A DNA stretch of 8,268 nt, from contig JBFLYE010000122.1 in NCBI GenBank assembly GCA_040756715.1, forward strand, positions 1 to 8,268. The letters are read 5' to 3'. This DNA comes from JBFLYE01 sp040756715 [NCBI: bacterium]. Lineage in GTDB: Bacteria > UBA9089 > UBA9088. Below are positions 37 to 7,425 of the stretch, one piece after another. The notes beneath the pieces were generated by a model that worked only from the letters and a program-made list of their open reading frames with translations, did no database searches and had not been told where the DNA came from. The position numbers and the translations under genes were made by a program. Position 1 is the stretch's first letter, and each line of letters begins with the position of its first letter.

Positions 37-131
37 TTGTCAAGTGCAAAATATGTAGTGCCGAAAAAATTGGGCCTTAGATTTAGTATTAGAGCCAATT
101 TTCAAATTTAGTGGCGAAAATGACTTGTCAA
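37..131. repeat. imperfect palindromic segment
   Basis: The ends TTGTCAAGT (37-45) and ACTTGTCAA (123-131) are inverted copies differing at one position. Inside them AAAATTGG (66-73) pairs with CCAATTTT (95-102). The segment therefore could fold into a long imperfect hairpin or be a small palindromic element. It ends just where the beta-helix reading frame becomes recognisable (codons from 124), so it may mark the disruption of that gene's 5' part. No gene is seen in 1-123; all forward frames are closed by stops. The middle of the palindrome pairs poorly, so confidence is low. Confidence 0.3.
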
Positions 132-414
132 CAATATAATCTTTGGAAATACCAATTCTGGCATAGACTGCTACAATAATTCTTTCCCAATCATTACAAA
201 CAATACCATATTTGGGAATAACAATCACGGCATTGACTGCGAAAGTTCTTCCTTCCCAACCATTACCAACAACATTGTAGCAGAAAATGGGACAACAAGC
301 TCTGGTTATTATGGCATCTATAATTCAGGAGGCAACCCTGTCATTAATATAACTGTGTCTTCGGAAATGGATATGGTGGAAACAGGAATTATTTTGGTTG
401 CTCTACTGGATTAA
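124..414 (+). pseudogene. parallel beta-helix fragment of large surface protein
   Basis: This frame encodes about 96 residues with no start codon of its own; it is preceded by TGA at 121 and ends at TAA 412-414. It shows two clear beta-helix rungs, NNIIFGNTNSGIDC and NNTIFGNNNHGIDC, each followed by a serine/proline turn and ITNN. This is the pattern of right-handed parallel beta-helix repeat proteins (polysaccharide-binding or adhesin-like, secreted). The good match stops at about 348, after GNPVIN. The homologous continuation YNCVFGNGYGGN lies in the other frame from 348 onward, so one base has been lost at about 348-350, either by mutation or by sequencing error. It is the N-terminal part of the same protein as the segments at 495-1358 and 1703-3841. 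The true N-terminus and signal peptide are not visible in the window. Confidence 0.7.
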
Positions 415-494
415 AGGACATACAACAAAATTCCCAATTTATAGGAGGAGATGATTTTCATCTTAAAGCTAATTCTCCCTGCATAGATGCTGGT

Positions 495-1358
495 TTGAAT
501 ACCGCACCCTCTATCTCTTCAACTGATAAGGATGGCAAGATAAGGATATTCAACGGTATTGTTGATATGGGTGCTTATGAGTATCAAGGGGCAGTAGAGC
601 CTCAAATATCAAGCATAGCTCCAAACAAAGGGGGAAATACAGGCGATGTTACAATAAAGATAACAGGAAGGGGGTTTGTGAATGATGCAATTTTAAAGCT
701 GACAAGGATAGGCTATCCCGATATTATTGGAACAATGACATACTATTCAGAGAGCTCCCTCCTTGCCACATTTGACCTTACTGCCAAAACCCCTGGTGTC
801 TGGAATGTGGTTGTTGTAAATTTGGGTCAGAACCTGATACTACAAAATGCATTTACCATTGAGCAAGGCGGTGAGCCAAAGCTTTGGACAAATGTTATAG
901 GAAGGCAAGAGATAAGGGTTGGACAAGAGCAATTATATTGGATAGATGTAGGAAATTCTGGAAATATTGATGCAGAAAATGTATATGTTAGGCTTACAAT
1001 TCCCACTGGATTTTTGCTTAAGAGGGTTGAGACAAAAGGTGGGTATATTGTCTGGGATAGGGATAGCCTTCTAAAAAATATTGAGGAGGGAAAAGCTCTA
1101 TATCCAGAAGATTGGCAAGGTATTCCAGATGGAAGTATAACAACATTCCTTGACCAATCTGATATATTCTGGATTCCAAGAATTAGACCTTCTGAAACAT
1201 TCGTATTTAAAGCAGTAATTTATGCGCCTTTAACCCTATCTTCCCAAGAGCATGAAGTCCAAGTTGCTATTGTTCCTGTTTTGGTAGCAGGAGCGAAAAT
1301 AGTTGGTGGGATTGTTGCAACTACTTATAGTATCTTCCATTACTTAGTGCAAAAATAG
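495..1358 (+). CDS. middle part of split secreted multi-domain protein (IPT/TIG, CARDB-like)
   Basis: The frame is open from 348, and TTG 495 is merely its first possible start; there is no ribosome site, so independent translation is doubtful. Bases 348-590 finish a beta-helix, with the hallmark NSPCIDAGLN followed by VDMGAYEYQG (choice-of-anchor Q type ending). Residues about 37-120 look like an IPT/TIG Ig-like domain (PQISSIAPNKGG, then ITGRGF). Residues about 130-270 resemble a CARDB/DUF11-like extracellular beta-sandwich (DVGNSGNIDAENVYVRLTIP). The last ten residues, YSIFHYLVQK, belong not to the protein but to the inserted miniature element starting at 1326. Without the insert, VATTY would continue into IKHCIAQTLKTTAEE at 1586. 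Role inferred: a cell-surface or secreted structural protein. There are no catalytic motifs. Domain names are from pattern recognition only. Confidence 0.7.
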   Translation: MNTAPSISSTDKDGKIRIFNGIVDMGAYEYQGAVEPQISSIAPNKGGNTGDVTIKITGRGFVNDAILKLTRIGYPDIIGTMTYYSESSLLATFDLTAKTPGVWNVVVVNLGQNLILQNAFTIEQGGEPKLWTNVIGRQEIRVGQEQLYWIDVGNSGNIDAENVYVRLTIPTGFLLKRVETKGGYIVWDRDSLLKNIEEGKALYPEDWQGIPDGSITTFLDQSDIFWIPRIRPSETFVFKAVIYAPLTLSSQEHEVQVAIVPVLVAGAKIVGGIVATTYSIFHYLVQK

Positions 1359-1584
1359 TATTTAAGAAATTTTGAATTCTAAATTTTGAATTTTGAATTG
1401 AAAAAGGTTAAGTTTTATAAAATTTTGAATTCTAAATTTTGAATTTTGAATTGAAGGTTTAAGTTTTATAAAATTTTTTCCCTTTTAATTCAAAATTCAA
1501 CATTCAAAATTCATAATTTTATAAAGTTTTCCTTAAGATTATCTAAACACATACATTTTGTAAAGCGTTATGGAATTAACTATA
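1326..1584. mobile_element. MITE-like element, copy A, splitting the surface-protein gene
   Basis: The left end TATAGTATCTTCCATTAC (1326-1343) and the inverse of the right end (GTTATGGAATTAACTATA, 1567-1584) match at 14 of 18 positions, giving terminal inverted repeats. TA at 1326-1327 and at 1583-1584 fits a TA target duplication, as made by IS630/Tc1-mariner-type elements. The inside is AT-rich and largely palindromic: a left arm of TTTTGAATT repeats (about 1367-1475) faces the inverse arm at 1483-1535. There is no transposase, so it would need one supplied in trans. Copy B lies at 6972-7212. Copy A lacks 35 net bases near 1359 and carries an extra tandem unit of about 53 bp (1367-1419 and 1420-1472). 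Deleting 257 bases restores the host reading frame exactly. Confidence 0.85.
1367..1472. repeat. 53-bp tandem duplication inside MITE copy A
   Basis: Two near-identical units of about 53 bp lie head to tail. Bases 1367-1402 equal 1420-1455 without a difference, and the rest differs by a small indel (AAAAAGGTTAAG against AAGGTTTAAG). Copy B has one unit only, so this is a duplication specific to copy A or a loss in copy B. Confidence 0.8.
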
Positions 1585-1702
1585 TATTAAGCATTGTATT
1601 GCCCAGACCCTTAAGACTACAGCAGAAGAGATAGCAGACCCGGCAGATACTGACCTTTGGCAGGCGCTTTATAAAACCTCTCATGAAGCTCTGGATAAAA
1701 CA

Positions 1703-3841
1703 GTGGAGGAAATTACAGGTTGGGCTAGTTGGGCCCAAGAGGGTATAGTAAAATTTAGTGAAAGTATTGTAAAAAATCCCGATGATATTGCATTTCGTTT
1801 GTATCAATCTGGGGTTGATCCAACAAAAGCAAAAGAAGTAACTTCTAACCTACAAGGTTTATATGCAAAGATAGGGATTACACCGGAGACAGTGGGAAAG
1901 GTTTCAAAGGGAGTTATGGTTCTTGATTTTGCATTGGAAATTGATAAAAAACTTGGGATATCTGGGGGAATGTGGCAGGAGATAACCAAATTGTTAAGTA
2001 GGGTTGCAGCGTGGGATCCGAATGATAAGGAAGGTCCTGCAAGCCAATGGATACTTCCAGAACAAACATTACATTACACAATATTCTTTGAAAACGCCAT
2101 TCCAACAGCCACAACCTATGCCAGAAGGATTGAGATTACAGACCAATTGGATTCTAACCTGGATTTGGCAACATTGGTTTTTGATGATGTTTGTATAGGA
2201 GGAAAGGTTATTGATATTCCAGAAGATAGCATAATCTCAACATCAACAATCTTTTCACCAGGCACCTGGACAGGTCCTGCACCAGAGACAGATACTTGTA
2301 AGCTTTGTATTTATGCCTCATCTACACCAACAGGACTTACCCGTTTTATCCTGGAGGCAAGAGATATAAATGGAAGCTTAACCGACCTTCTTCCTCCCAA
2401 TTCATATTCCCCAAATGGCGAAGGATGGGTAAGCTTTAGCATTAAGCCTAAATCAGATCTATCATCTGAAACACAGATAAAAAACAAGGCTGGCATTATA
2501 TTTGATATCAATCCTCCAATAGACACAAAAGAGGTGCTTAATACAGTTGATGCAAGTTTCCCAGCAAGTAGCATTGCTTCGCTTCCCTTAACCCAGACAA
2601 GAACTACATTTTCAGTAAATTATTCTGGAAGCGATGCCCATTCTGGGGTAAAAAACCTTGTAGTCTATATTTCTGACAATGGTGCATCTTATGCCCCCAT
2701 ATTCACAAAGACATTTGATAGCCCCCTCTCTACATTTTCTGGTTCTTTCACCTATCAGGGTAAATATGGCCATAGCTATAAATTCTATTCTCGCTCAATG
2801 GATGCAGTAGGTAACTTTGAGGCTGAGCCATTATCTCCTGATGCAGAGATAAGTATTATTCTTGAAGGATTAAGGATAAATACAGACAAAAGGGCATTGG
2901 GTATATCAGCAACAACAACCCTGTATTCCCTGAATCAAGAAGGGACAGAATATGTGGAGGGAACATGGAGCATTGAGGGAAACATTGGAACATTGTCTAA
3001 TAGCTTTGGAACAAGCACCATTTTTTATGCATCATCTATTGGCTTTGGGACAATTAGTGTTATAAGCCAGGCAAAGGGTAGCTGGACAAGTATCATTGTT
3101 GGAAGGCTTGTAGATAAAGTAAATACTTTAACGGCCACCCTATCTGTTTTCTGGGGAACAGCAACAATTAGAATAGGAACAGAGGCAAATACCCTTGTCT
3201 TTATTCCACCGAAGGCTGCAAGCGTGGATAAATTAAGCAAGCTAAAGGGAAATGTTGGAATTGGTGTTGTTCTTAATGCCTATGATACCTTGGGTAACAA
3301 GCTCTCTGGAACCTTAACTAATCCCATCTATATTGAGATACAATATAAAAAGGAATTACTTGGAAACATAGACGAGAATACATTGCTCTTTTATATCCTG
3401 TCAGATGAGGGAGATGTTGGAGGAACCATATCTTGTAGCCTATCTACAATAACCAAAACAATCTCTGGAACATTTAATCACCTTTCCATAATTGCATTAG
3501 CTGGGACAAGCCAACAGGCCCTTACTGCCGAGAATCTAAAAAACATCTCTGTCTACCCCAACCCATTTGTCCCTTATGACAATGACAAGGATAATGGCAT
3601 TCCCTATAATGGCTCAGCGGATTCGGGGATTACCTTTAAGGGATTGACCGAAAATGCAGAGATTAGGATATTCAATCTAGCGGGTAGGTTGGTAAGGGAG
3701 GTTATGCTTACAAATCAAGGAATCTGGCAATGGGATGCGAGAAATCAAAATAATAAAGAACTGTCAAGTGGGATATACATCTATGTAATTACAAATAACA
3801 AAAAAGAGAAGGCAACGGGTAGGATTGCCATTGTGAAATGA
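1703..3841 (+). CDS. C-terminal part of split surface protein (DPNDK domain, Ig-like, FlgD/T9SS-like end)
   Basis: The ORF is given from GTG 1703, but the frame is open and looks coding from 1586, directly at the end of the miniature element. No ribosome site precedes 1703, so this is the downstream half of the gene broken at 1326. Order in the 712 residues: a helical region (1-100, plus about 39 codons upstream); WDPNDKEGP at about 103, typical of the DUF7619-like domain with DPNDK, followed by LHYTIFFENA and ITDQLDSNL; Ig/Fn3-like modules at about 285-480; a beta-rich region at about 490-595; and a C-terminal FlgD-Ig/T9SS-like module with VYPNPF, then EIRIFNLAGRLVRE and SSGIYIYVI. Such C-termini are known as sorting signals of type IX secretion in Bacteroidetes. 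It overlaps the PorV-like gene by ATGA, which suggests translational coupling. Secretion by a T9SS-like route is an inference. Confidence 0.8.
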   Translation: MEEITGWASWAQEGIVKFSESIVKNPDDIAFRLYQSGVDPTKAKEVTSNLQGLYAKIGITPETVGKVSKGVMVLDFALEIDKKLGISGGMWQEITKLLSRVAAWDPNDKEGPASQWILPEQTLHYTIFFENAIPTATTYARRIEITDQLDSNLDLATLVFDDVCIGGKVIDIPEDSIISTSTIFSPGTWTGPAPETDTCKLCIYASSTPTGLTRFILEARDINGSLTDLLPPNSYSPNGEGWVSFSIKPKSDLSSETQIKNKAGIIFDINPPIDTKEVLNTVDASFPASSIASLPLTQTRTTFSVNYSGSDAHSGVKNLVVYISDNGASYAPIFTKTFDSPLSTFSGSFTYQGKYGHSYKFYSRSMDAVGNFEAEPLSPDAEISIILEGLRINTDKRALGISATTTLYSLNQEGTEYVEGTWSIEGNIGTLSNSFGTSTIFYASSIGFGTISVISQAKGSWTSIIVGRLVDKVNTLTATLSVFWGTATIRIGTEANTLVFIPPKAASVDKLSKLKGNVGIGVVLNAYDTLGNKLSGTLTNPIYIEIQYKKELLGNIDENTLLFYILSDEGDVGGTISCSLSTITKTISGTFNHLSIIALAGTSQQALTAENLKNISVYPNPFVPYDNDKDNGIPYNGSADSGITFKGLTENAEIRIFNLAGRLVREVMLTNQGIWQWDARNQNNKELSSGIYIYVITNNKKEKATGRIAIVK

Positions 3842-4983
3842 AAATGAAATTGCTTTTAGTAATTGGCTTAATAGCATTTTCAGGCTATGGAATTGATGAA
3901 AACGCCGGGGTATCCGGGGCACAATTTCTAAATAATATTGGGGTTAGTGCAAGGGCAAGTGGAATGGCTGGTGCATATTGTGCCCTTTCGGATGATGTTG
4001 ATAGCATATGCTACAATCCCGCTGGGCTTGGAAAGATAGAGAAAAAAGGGATCGGATTTATGCATAGCCGCTATCTTAATGAGGTAAATTATGAGTATCT
4101 GGCAGGGGTTATGCCTCTTGGAAATCAAGGAATAGGAATTGCCCTTTCCTTGCTCAATTCCTCTCGGATAAAAAGGACTACCATCTCAAACCCCACTGGT
4201 GATGGCTCTTACTTTGATGCCTGTGATTATAGCCTTACCGGCTCATATGGAAAAAACATTACCAATTCCCTTTCTTGTGGGTTTAACCTTCGCTATATTG
4301 CTCAAAGGATTGACAAATTCTCTGCCAAGGGCTTGGGAGGGGATTTTGGAATACTTTGCAACACCCCAATTAAGGATTTAAAGCTTGGTTTTGTCCTTCA
4401 AAACATAGGAGGAAAAATAAAGTTTGTTGAGAAGGAAGATAAACAACCTTTTAATATTAAGGCAGGAGTGGGCTATAAAATAAATAGGGCAAACCTTGCT
4501 TTGGATATAAATAAACCAGCTGATAGCGGTCTAGGGATAAATCTGGGTGGAGAGTTTTGGCTAATCAACAATCTATGCCTTAGGGCAGGATATGCCTCAG
4601 GTGCAGATGATGGCTCAGGAATAAGTGGAGGGCTAGGGATAGGATTTAAAGAGATTAAGCTTGATTATGCCTATATTCCCCGTAAGCTCCTTCAAGATAG
4701 CCATTATCTTTCATTAAAGATTGGCTTTGGTAAAGAAAAAAGGGAAAAACCCAGGGTTAAGAAAGTAGAAACTAAAGCAAAAGGGATTCCTAAAACAGAG
4801 GAAGCTCCTAAATTACCCCCTTCTGAAAGCCGTTTATCCAAGCTTATCCTCTATTCAAATCCATCCGGTGCAAAGGTTTATCTGGACAATACATTCAAAG
4901 GAACAACACCCATTATCCTCGATGAGCTAGCCTTACAAAAGCCATACAAGATAAGGGTATCAATGGATGGCTTAAAGGATTGA
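3838..4983 (+). CDS. PorV/PorQ-family outer-membrane protein with truncated PEGA domain
   Basis: The 381-residue product starts with a signal peptide (MKMKLLLVIGLIAFSGYG). The family motif follows at 35-65: GVSARASGMAGAYCALSDD, then YNPAGLG. Repeated amphipathic strands with glycine-rich turns run to about 296, as in the FadL-like barrels of the PorV/PorQ (UPF0164) group. After a lysine/proline-rich linker (about 297-333) comes a PEGA domain (334-381; LILYSNPSGAKVYLDN, then GTTP), usually a surface beta-sandwich. The start ATG overlaps the stop of the upstream gene (ATGA). In Bacteroidetes PorV is the shuttle of type IX secretion; here the neighbouring FlgD-like-tailed protein fits as a cargo, but this is inferred. 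TGA at 4981 ends the frame inside the PEGA domain. The same frame continues with EKEFIPKERIDSLRAELIQ to TAA at 5050-5052, as PEGA tails commonly do, so TGA looks like a nonsense change or a readthrough site. Confidence 0.88.
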   Translation: MKMKLLLVIGLIAFSGYGIDENAGVSGAQFLNNIGVSARASGMAGAYCALSDDVDSICYNPAGLGKIEKKGIGFMHSRYLNEVNYEYLAGVMPLGNQGIGIALSLLNSSRIKRTTISNPTGDGSYFDACDYSLTGSYGKNITNSLSCGFNLRYIAQRIDKFSAKGLGGDFGILCNTPIKDLKLGFVLQNIGGKIKFVEKEDKQPFNIKAGVGYKINRANLALDINKPADSGLGINLGGEFWLINNLCLRAGYASGADDGSGISGGLGIGFKEIKLDYAYIPRKLLQDSHYLSLKIGFGKEKREKPRVKKVETKAKGIPKTEEAPKLPPSESRLSKLILYSNPSGAKVYLDNTFKGTTPIILDELALQKPYKIRVSMDGLKD

Positions 4984-5052
4984 GAAAAAGAATTTATTCC
5001 CAAAGAAAGGATAGATTCATTAAGGGCTGAGCTAATCCAAGCTCCAAAGTAA
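4984..5052 (+). other. in-frame PEGA tail beyond TGA stop
   Basis: Twenty-two codons follow the TGA at 4981-4983 in the same frame, ending in TAA 5050-5052 (EKEFIPKERIDSLRAELIQ...). The composition and the alternating pattern fit the last strand and tail of a PEGA domain. A single change from TGG (Trp) to TGA would explain it. Other genes here end in TGA (3839, 5577, 6434) and use TGG, so a reassigned code is unlikely. Confidence 0.65.
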
Positions 5053-5108
5053 TATTCTGCCTAACAAACCCCTTGCCAAATAATGGTTAGATTGTATAAC
5101 ATTATATA

Positions 5109-5166
5109 TATGAAACTTAAGCATTGACATTGGCGGGATAAAGCTTAAAGATAGCCATTTTGGATG
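5109..5166 (+). repeat. 58-bp direct repeat, copy 1
   Basis: The sequence from TATGAAACTTAAGCATTGAC to TTTTGGATG recurs at 5937-5994 with one difference (C at 5128, T at 5956). It contains short inverted repeats (CTTAAGC with GCTTAA; TGGC with GCCA). In one forward frame it reads NLSIDIGGIKLKDSHFG, followed in this copy by WREQHPAGL and a stop, so it may be a fragment of an old gene. It lies just before the two-gene cassette. Confidence 0.85.
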
Positions 5167-5579: not shown

Positions 5580-5935
5580 GAGGATACCTTGATGAGACCC
5601 TAACCCCAAGGGTAGAGGTAACCCTATTTGATATTGAGAAAATAGGAAAGGATTTTTCTTGTGTTATTGACACCGGATTTACAGAGGAAATCTACCTACC
5701 AGTAAAATTTGCTGAGGAACTCAATCTTGAGATATCAGGGGTAGAACCTATTATGCTTGCTGATGGAAGCATAACAAAAGTGAGTATTGCCCCTATTTTT
5801 TTAAAATGGTGTGACAAGACAAAGGAGGTAATAGCTTTAATTGGAGGGGGTAAGGACATTCTGATTGGAATAAAGTTATTGAGCGATTATGAGCTCAAAA
5901 TCAATTTTACAAAGGGGGTTGTTGAGCTCTTATAG
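5576..5935 (+). CDS. clan AA (retropepsin-like) aspartic protease
   Basis: The product has 119 residues from TTG 5576, which overlaps the preceding stop by four bases. GGAGG at 5563-5567 lies 8 bases upstream, so the TTG start is well supported. The catalytic motif is DTG at 32-34 within SCVIDTGFTEEIYLP. LADGS follows at 61-65 (flap region) and ILIG at 95-98, the hydrophobic-hydrophobic-Gly element that closes retropepsin-fold domains. These three elements in this order and at this length fit the single-domain clan AA proteases of bacteria and archaea, which must dimerise to form an active site with two DTG loops. There is no signal peptide, so it is cytoplasmic. Its substrate is unknown; the coupled small protein upstream is the obvious candidate partner. 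The 58-bp repeat copy 2 begins two bases after the stop. Confidence 0.85.
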   Translation: MRGYLDETLTPRVEVTLFDIEKIGKDFSCVIDTGFTEEIYLPVKFAEELNLEISGVEPIMLADGSITKVSIAPIFLKWCDKTKEVIALIGGGKDILIGIKLLSDYELKINFTKGVVELL

Positions 5936-5936
5936 C

Positions 5937-5994
5937 TATGAAACTTAAGCATTGATATTGGCGGGATAAAGCTTAAAGATAGCCATTTTGGATG
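5937..5994 (+). repeat. 58-bp direct repeat, copy 2
   Basis: Same as 5109-5166 except T at 5956. The two copies are 828 bp apart in direct orientation and enclose the small protein and the aspartic protease. Similarity ends sharply at both sides: copy 1 continues with GAGAGAACAAC, copy 2 with AGAATGATAAC. Confidence 0.85.
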
Positions 5995-6858: not shown

Positions 6859-6972
6859 AAAGAAGGAATTGCCTTAAAAGAAGCATTGTCTCGTATCTAC
6901 CAATCACTAACCGAGGGGAATGCACATAGCCCACCCGAACAAAGGGAAAGATTATACAGGAATAGCATTCTT
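6859..6972 (+). pseudogene. probable IS66 transposase internal fragment
   Basis: This plus-strand frame reads KEGIALKEALSRIYQSL, then TEGNAHSPPEQRERLYRNSIL, running into the left end of the miniature element. The spacing of RIYQSL and PPEQRERLYR resembles the segment of IS66-type transposases just before the conserved EPTNNRAER block found at 7249. About 40 residues between the two pieces are not seen. It is preceded by TGA at 6856. The resemblance is weak and judged by eye. Confidence 0.35.
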
Positions 6973-7212
6973 ATAGTATCTTCCATTACTTAGTGCAAAA
7001 ATAGATAGGGTTGTGTTTATCTGTTAAAAATTCATCCACCTTTTAAGAAATTTTGAATTCTAAATTTTGAATTTTGAATTGAAGGTTTAAGTTTTATAAA
7101 ATTTTTTCCCTTTTAATTCAAAATTCAACATTCAAAATTCATAATTTTATAAAGTTTTCCTTAAGATTATCTAAACACATACATTTTGTAAAGCGTTATG
7201 GAATTAACTATA
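6972..7212. mobile_element. MITE-like element, copy B
   Basis: It has the same ends as copy A: TATAGTATCTTCCATTAC at 6972-6989 and GTTATGGAATTAACTATA at 7195-7212. Bases 7051-7212 equal 1423-1584 with no difference, and 6970-7004 equals 1324-1358. Copy B carries 37 bases (7005-7041) replaced by TA in copy A, and only one of the 53-bp units, so it is 241 bp rather than 259 bp. The interior can fold into a long AT-rich hairpin (about 7057-7082 against 7111-7146). It carries no coding sequence. Confidence 0.85.
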
Positions 7213-7236
7213 ATTATATGGAATTAACTATAATTA
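7198..7236. repeat. 20-bp tandem duplication of the MITE right end
   Basis: ATGGAATTAACTATAATTA occurs at 7198-7216 and again at 7218-7236. The right terminal inverted repeat of copy B is thus present twice, and the element could alternatively end at 7232. Confidence 0.8.
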
Positions 7237-7425
7237 AAGTATAAGGTAGAACCAACCAATAACCGAGCAGAAAGGGGATTGAGGGAACAGGTAGTAATCC
7301 GTAAGATAATAGGAAGCTTGAGGAATGAAAAAGGAACCAGAATCTATTGAAGTGATTACCTCTGTTTTGACTACCTTAAAAACAAAAAGGATATGATCTT
7401 AACCAAAAGTTGGTATATACACTAT
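7234..7425 (+). pseudogene. IS66-family transposase, C-terminal remnant with frameshifts
   Basis: Codons from 7234 read LKYKVEPTNNRAERGLRE, then QVVIRKIIGSLRNEKGTRIY and TGA at 7348. EPTNNRAERGLR followed by RKI-G-RNEKGTR is the hallmark block of IS66-type (DDE) transposases just before the C-terminal end; the Glu in AER belongs to it. One extra base at 7348 shifts the rest to EVITSVLTTLKTKR (7349-7390), and one more base at about 7391 to YDLNQKL, so at least two frameshifts are present. The 5' bulk of the gene is absent. It stands directly behind MITE copy B. It is dead as a transposase. Confidence 0.8.

What the first reader, a model, noticed from the sequence alone, without database searches (positions are those of the whole stretch)
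1326..1584. A miniature element splits a giant surface-protein gene and can be removed on paper to restore the frame exactly
The stop of the upstream ORF and the last ten codons before it are inside an element with 14/18-matched terminal inverted repeats and TA at both ends. Joining 1327 to 1585 gives ...GGIVATTYIKHCIAQTLKTT..., with both reading frames in phase and coding-like sequence resuming at once. The two ORFs were therefore one gene, and insertion is recent enough that no further damage has built up in the downstream half.
Basis: seen in the sequence. Interest (0 to 1): 0.75.

Follow-up and report, generated by a model that had tools for sequence, protein, structure and literature searches.

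The report
Jumping mini-element split a surface-protein gene
A very short piece of jumping DNA, present about a hundred times in this small genome of an uncultured bacterium, landed inside a large surface-protein gene and cut it in two; it is a new family of a known kind of element, caught soon after a burst of copying.

Summary
Bases 1326-1584 are a MITE: TA + 255 bp + TA, ends matching 14/18, no coding capacity. Keeping one TA (1327 joined to 1585) gives one open frame of 1,078 codons across the site.

The genome (1.55 Mb, 218 contigs) holds 98 left-type and 97 right-type ends (controls 0), roughly 97 copies. Of 29 complete copies aligned, 10 are identical, including the second copy in this window (6972-7212). 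The sister species holds 3 ends. This looks like a very recent burst.

The TA duplication is shown directly: one copy's joined flanks match an unfilled site in the sister species over 197 bp without a gap. Keeping one TA opens a frame in 7 of 27 copies against 1-2 for other spacings; one is a response regulator that aligns to solved relatives without a gap at the junction.

Corrections: the broken gene also changes frame near 345-352; the junction lies in a variable region, so no homologue found aligns across this exact site; no transposase with these ends was found. Unexpected: the element's inner shoulders match an older MITE family, and the sister species carries the same shoulders inside different ends.

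The parts
1326..1327 (.). left copy of the TA target duplication
   Evidence: one TA is kept in the unfilled site of another copy; at this site the joined frame opens only with one TA
1328..1582 (+). MITE copy 1, 255 bp between the TAs (259-bp type; identical to the G000:C70 copy)
1583..1584 (.). right copy of the TA target duplication
1361..1525 (.). inner palindrome of AATTTTG-type 7-bp repeats (arms 1361-1402, 1414-1455 against 1484-1525)
   Evidence: single-strand fold of the element z = -4.25
1527..1554 (-). right inner shoulder of the element, shared with an older MITE family (ends GTATGTGTTTAG)
348..1327 (+). upstream piece of the split surface-protein gene (TIG, DUF11-like), frame 3, ending at the element
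   Evidence: Pfam matches just under the curated cut-offs
121..345 (+). further upstream coding sequence of the same gene in another frame (second lesion or assembly error near 345-352)
1585..3841 (+). downstream piece of the split gene (DUF7619, CHU_C type IX sorting domain), open to its stop
6972..7212 (+). MITE copy 2 (241-bp type incl. both TAs; identical to nine other aligned copies)
7011..7040 (+). left inner shoulder in copy 2 (replaced by extra 7-bp repeats in copy 1)
7155..7182 (-). right inner shoulder in copy 2

Best explanation
A non-autonomous DNA element (MITE) moved into a TA inside a gene for a surface protein with a type IX sorting domain, duplicating the TA. It adds 257 bp, which brings in a stop as the 11th codon and shifts the frame by two, so the gene is split into an upstream fragment without its sorting domain and a downstream fragment without the gene's own start. 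Shown: repeat status, boundaries, TA duplication (at another copy), recency, frame restoration. Inferred: movement in trans by a transposase that recognises the TATAGT...TTCCAT ends; the TA target fits IS630/Tc1-mariner chemistry (family knowledge), but no such transposase was found. Inferred too: the mobile unit arose when an older MITE became enclosed between the present ends and the composite then multiplied.
For: 98 left and 97 right ends in 1.55 Mb, control 0; 37 complete pairs, 54 unpaired ends within 150 bp of a contig start. 10 of 29 aligned copies identical. Sister species: 3 ends by the pattern. Unfilled site: joined flanks of copy L013 match G001:C81 over 197 bp, no gap, 95%, TA once. 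One-TA joins open a frame (more than 40 codons on each side) in 7 of 27 copies; no TA 1, T 1, TAT 2, TATA 2. Joined response regulator of L007 aligns without a gap at the junction to PDB 1kgs and 9ji3. A relative of the L014 gene in G001 aligns at 71% with no gap at the junction. Uninterrupted homologues of the window gene.
Against: The window's own site has no unfilled counterpart in G001-G004, and no homologue was found that aligns across it. Only 1 of 26 joined flanks tested matched a nearly full-length unfilled site; L010, L011, L027 and L029 matched 8-31 bases past the junction, L027 and L029 with a one-base gap just before it and L029 without the TA in the relative; L014 matched at 71% without the TA in the relative; L016 hit only dispersed repeats; 19 had nothing beyond 6 bases past the junction. 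No transposase with these ends was found: the one DDE_3 protein in the genome lies between other ends. The genome is a fragmented assembly.
Confidence: 0.93

Rival explanations
1. The two ORFs are naturally separate genes and the repeat lies between them as a normal intergenic element.
For: The downstream frame has a possible GTG start at 1703; the MITE descriptions seen put most copies between genes (passages of PMC10969869, abstract of PMC4596501).
Against: The downstream frame is open for 39 codons before any ATG/GTG/TTG, right up to the element edge. Homologues hold both parts in one frame. The one-TA join opens frames in 7 of 27 copies.
Confidence: 0.04
2. The junction is an assembly artefact: a repeat copy wrongly joined to two unrelated gene pieces in a short-read assembly.
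For: By estimate about 60 of 97 copies are broken at contig ends, and two complete copies contain runs of N.
Against: The two flanks restore one frame and one domain order matching a homologue. This copy is of the rarer 259-like type (4 of 29 aligned, with further ones read), so mis-joining would need another copy of that type.
Confidence: 0.03
3. The element is a regulatory or structural repeat (a folded RNA or terminator) kept for function rather than a mobile element.
For: Strong folding potential (z -4.25 as DNA for copy 1, -4.47 as RNA for copy 2).
Against: Insertion into genes at TA, identical copies, an unfilled site in the sister species. No Rfam match in the window at gathering scores.
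Confidence: 0.02
4. The mobilising enzyme is the genome's own single IS630-type transposase (G000:C164). (A rival about the engine, compatible with the main explanation.)
For: It is the only DDE_3 match in the genome, in two overlapping frames, and its inverted repeats also begin at TATA.
Against: Its inverted repeats (TATRTAACGCATWAA) do not resemble the MITE ends.
Confidence: 0.12

Closest known systems
RUP of Streptococcus pneumoniae (read as passages of PMC3049150)
   Same: Short, AT-rich, foldable, inverted ends, target duplication; 110 copies in one genome; proposed to be moved in trans by an IS630-type element (IS630-Spn1).
   Different: About 107 bp; its ends are similar to those of a resident IS630; no such partner was found here. 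No nested core is described in the passages seen.
Chunjie MITE of Geobacter uraniireducens (passage of the review PMC10969869)
   Same: 235-bp element, one copy of which disrupts an operon, with 37 further copies.
   Different: Those 37 are intergenic; here 7 of 27 complete copies tested lie inside a frame that opens on joining.
Nezha MITE of cyanobacteria (seen only as a reference-list entry in PMC10969869; TA target recalled)
   Same: Active miniature element with inverted ends in a bacterium.
   Different: Sequences were not compared here.
BrickBuilt MITE of Porphyromonas gingivalis (abstract of PMC4596501)
   Same: MITE with a tandem repeat inside.
   Different: 23-nt repeats, 19 copies in one strain, always intergenic; here 7-bp repeats in a palindrome, about 97 copies, some in genes.
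IS630/Tc1-mariner family
   Same: Inserts at TA and duplicates it (recalled as family knowledge).
   Different: No shared ends with those IS630-type elements whose ends could be read here.

Membership tests
MITE (miniature inverted-repeat transposable element) | Short, no transposase gene | tested here: met
   208-269 bp in 29 distinct complete copies, some shorter ones; no ORF of 60 aa or more lies within either copy in the window
MITE (miniature inverted-repeat transposable element) | Terminal inverted repeats | tested here: met
   14/18, 27 of 20,000 shuffles as good
MITE (miniature inverted-repeat transposable element) | Target-site duplication | tested here: met
   TA, unfilled site of one copy in G001:C81; frame test 7 of 27
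MITE (miniature inverted-repeat transposable element) | Multiple dispersed copies | tested here: met
   98 + 97 ends
MITE (miniature inverted-repeat transposable element) | An autonomous partner with the same ends (usual, not strictly defining) | tested here: inconclusive
   None found among own-genome ends or DDE_3 / DDE_Tnp_1 hits; other transposase families were not searched and the assembly is incomplete
IS630/Tc1-mariner-derived MITE | TA target duplication | tested here: met
IS630/Tc1-mariner-derived MITE | Ends shared with an IS630-type element | tested here: not met
   The intact-looking one in G000 has other ends; relics in G001:C159, G002:C73, G003:C148 and C155, read by eye, too; other relics undetermined. 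Therefore not filed as IS630-derived, only 'works like'
RUP | Sequence relationship to pneumococcal RUP | not tested
   comparison is by description only

The most novel reading that the evidence does not exclude
Shells around a core: an old MITE family (ends GTATGTGTTTAGCT, found in four genomes of the order) has been enclosed at least twice by unrelated transposon ends, TATAGT...TTCCAT in this species and GTAACTATTCA in its sister, and each enclosed composite then multiplied. A non-autonomous element would thus change transposase by acquiring new ends while its core, with lineage-specific short tandem repeats, persists.
Probability: 0.35. Interest if true: 0.55.

Novelty: new member of a known kind. 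Interest (0 to 1): 0.38.

Why it matters
It documents a MITE burst in an uncultured phylum (19 genomes held), about one copy per 16 kb, in which copies split genes, a response regulator among them, before selection has removed them. The copies coincide with many contig breaks (54 unpaired ends lie within 150 bp of a contig start, 218 contigs in all), which helps explain why such genomes assemble badly. It supplies exact ends with which to hunt the missing transposase and, through a shared core under different ends in two sister species, a testable case of how MITE families are renewed.

Tried and rejected
Searching for an alignable homologue across the junction: none in 19 genomes of the phylum with the 170-aa joined piece and none in genome contigs with a 401-aa joined piece. 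The end pattern in other genomes: 5 single hits in genome contigs, all inside open frames of 182 to 450 codons, so taken as chance; two of them (L101, L104) are the same place in related Peptostreptococcaceae and have a 4-mismatch inverted sequence 0.8 kb away, also in an open frame. 0 hits in viral contigs; copy 2 has no match in plasmids or phages. Autonomous partner: PF01609 gives one degenerate hit in G000; PF13358 gives one protein with other ends; sequence around unpaired internal ends showed no transposase-sized pair of ends, only diverged copies and half-elements joined to ends of another family. A sequence with 5 mismatches to the end pattern about 0.9 kb from a DDE_3 relic in G001:C59 lies inside a 567-codon frame and was dropped. 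I first took a TATAGTTAACC end beside an IS630 relic in G003 for a partner end; the relic's own end seems to lie elsewhere (by eye). The idea that the duplication is 4 bp (TATA) is rejected.

Rows dropped before counts: 31 rows were printed, two of them (both L023) duplicates of L022 copies; 29 aligned; one search used 27 (L018, L024 and the L023 rows left out); searches used 26 (one further copy with a short flank left out). The 37 pairs miss at least three complete copies whose second end is more diverged (C153, C168, C63).

Full report
What is in the window. The element runs from the TA at 1326-1327 to the TA at 1583-1584. Its two ends match at 14 of 18 positions; 27 of 20,000 shuffles do as well. 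The upstream frame ends at TAG 1356-1358 inside the element and the downstream frame is open from just inside its right edge to 3841. Joining 1327 to 1585 gives one frame of 1,078 codons. A second copy lies at 6972-7212.

It is a high-copy family. A DNA search of the own genome (1,552,737 bases, 218 contigs, the window being contig C122) gave 83 matching stretches, with only part of the candidates scored. A pattern for the shared part of both ends, with up to 2 mismatches, found 193 ends in this genome, 3 in the sister species G001, 1 in G004 and 0 in the other 16 of 19 genomes of the phylum; the reversed control gave 0 in the own genome and 3 hits in all, one each in three other genomes. Separate patterns gave 98 left and 97 right ends with 0 control hits. 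Paired by position they make 37 complete copies, with 61 left and 60 right ends unpaired, 54 of these within 150 bp of a contig start; at least three more copies are complete but have one diverged end. About 97 copies is the resulting estimate; it assumes that each broken copy shows both ends.

It is recent. Of 29 complete copies aligned, 10 are identical over 241 bp, copy 2 of the window among them; copy 1 belongs to a 259-bp type, identical to the copy on C70 and close to those on C23 and C131. The outer base is T or C on the left in 29 of 31 rows and A in 24 of 31 on the right, two rows being duplicates.

Target duplication. Twenty-six joined flanks were compared with G001-G004. One (L013) matches G001:C81 over 197 bp, no gap, 95%, identical over the first 145 bp, which include the site, with TA once. 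L010, L011, L027 and L029 match the left flank and 8 to 31 bases past the junction; L027 and L029 need a one-base gap just before it, and L029 lacks the TA in the relative. L014 matches a relative at 71% across the site with no gap there, though without the TA. L016 hit dispersed repeats only. The other 19, the window's own site included, have no match reaching more than 6 bases past the junction. Independently, joining with one TA opens a frame with more than 40 codons on each side in 7 of 27 copies, against 1 without TA, 1 with T, 2 with TAT and 2 with TATA. One of the seven is an OmpR-type response regulator whose joined product aligns without a gap at the junction to solved relatives (1kgs, 9ji3); another is a RimK-like ATP-grasp protein, another has WD40-like repeats.

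The split gene. The downstream piece carries DUF7619 and a CHU_C type IX sorting domain over the cut-offs; the upstream piece has DUF11 and TIG matches just under them. G014:C153 has both parts in one 2,369-aa frame: joined residues 1-219 at 55% and 462-1078 at 46%. The part between, which includes the junction at about residue 326, is not alignable there, and no relative of it was found. In G001 the gene next to porV keeps the last 120 residues at 88% and is one 3,835-aa frame without any end of this element; its middle differs too. So the two ORFs were one gene, though the exact join rests on the element's rule rather than on a homologue of this spot. The upstream part is damaged as well: the coding frame changes near 345-352, where G014:C153 reads on continuously. 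This may be real or an assembly error.

How it works. Shown: a repeat without coding capacity, exact ends, TA duplication, recent spread. Inferred: movement by a transposase acting in trans on the ends. TA targets fit IS630/Tc1-mariner enzymes, but the only DDE_3 match in the genome (C164) lies between other ends, and those relics in G001-G003 whose ends I could read by eye have other ends too. Other transposase families, DDE_Tnp_1 apart, were not searched. The engine is therefore unidentified. Insertion adds 257 bp here (239 for the common type), both of which shift the frame and bring in stops.

A core under different ends. Inside the outer ends lie two shoulders and a palindrome of 7-bp repeats. 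The shoulders match an older MITE family with ends GTATGTGTTTAGCT / AGCTAAACAC(A/G)TAC: a degenerate pattern for such ends, which also catches a few ends of the present family, gave 89 hits in G000, 98 in G001, 14 in G004, 15 in G003, 0 in G002 and 1 or 2 in each of three others of 19 genomes, with 1 control hit in all; stand-alone copies were read in G001. In G001 a 267-bp element with ends GTAACTATTCA carries the same shoulders: shoulder against shoulder, 0 of 2,000 shuffles score as well on either side, while the outer ends are no more alike than chance (1,301 and 1,221 of 2,000 shuffles score as well). A stand-alone copy of the older family also matches both shoulders (0 of 2,000 each). 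A G001 copy of the present family has the same ends and shoulders but 8-bp repeats in place of the 7-bp ones. Several own-genome copies are half this family and half the older one. The simplest reading is nesting followed by amplification; end exchange is the bolder one. Shoulders were compared using one chosen copy of each family, so this part is a lead.

Comparison with print. Seen: passages of the review PMC10969869 and of PMC3049150 (RUP, 110 copies, IS630-Spn1), the abstract and outline of PMC4596501 (BrickBuilt); other titles and abstract openings only as search listings. None of those listings showed this element; that is not proof that it is undescribed.

Verdict. A new MITE family in a recent burst, one copy of which splits a surface-protein gene with a type IX sorting domain. 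The finding is correct; its kind is known.

Noticed in passing
G000 and G001 genome-wide; stand-alone copies L154-L161: A second, older MITE family with ends GTATGTGTTTAGCT / AGCTAAACAC(A/G)TAC, 89 and 98 pattern hits, also in G003 and G004. Interiors are short tandem repeats of differing sequence.
   Followed up: partly
L061 2676-2942; also G001 contigs C1, C40, C49, C77, C91, C114: A third MITE family in the sister species with ends GTAACTATTCA, 267 bp in L061, which shares the inner shoulders of the present family; several copies lie at contig ends.
   Followed up: partly
window 3838-5052: The porV-like ORF with a PEGA domain stops at TGA 4981-4983, but the same frame stays open and coding-like to 5049; possibly a second broken gene beside the split one. 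I did not check that residue in relatives (one search lists few that reach so far).
   Followed up: partly
window 7198-7232: The last 15 bp of element copy 2 are repeated 5 bp after it (ATGGAATTAACTATA twice), like a remnant of an earlier end at the same place.
   Followed up: no
window 7246-7350: Remnant of the C-terminus of an IS66 transposase beside copy 2 (weak match, E 0.0006, under the cut-off).
   Followed up: partly
window 5102-5166 and 5930-5994: A 65-bp direct repeat, 95% identical, flanking two small ORFs.
   Followed up: no
L044-L049 and L051 (G016, G012, G004, G018, G014, G017, G002): Tandem 7-bp repeats such as AATTCAT or AATTTTG, in some places as palindromes, stand at unrelated places in several genomes of the phylum.
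   Followed up: no
L015, L007, L022, L014: Other genes split by this family: a 1,001-codon frame, a response regulator, an ATP-grasp protein, a protein with WD40-like repeats.
   Followed up: partly
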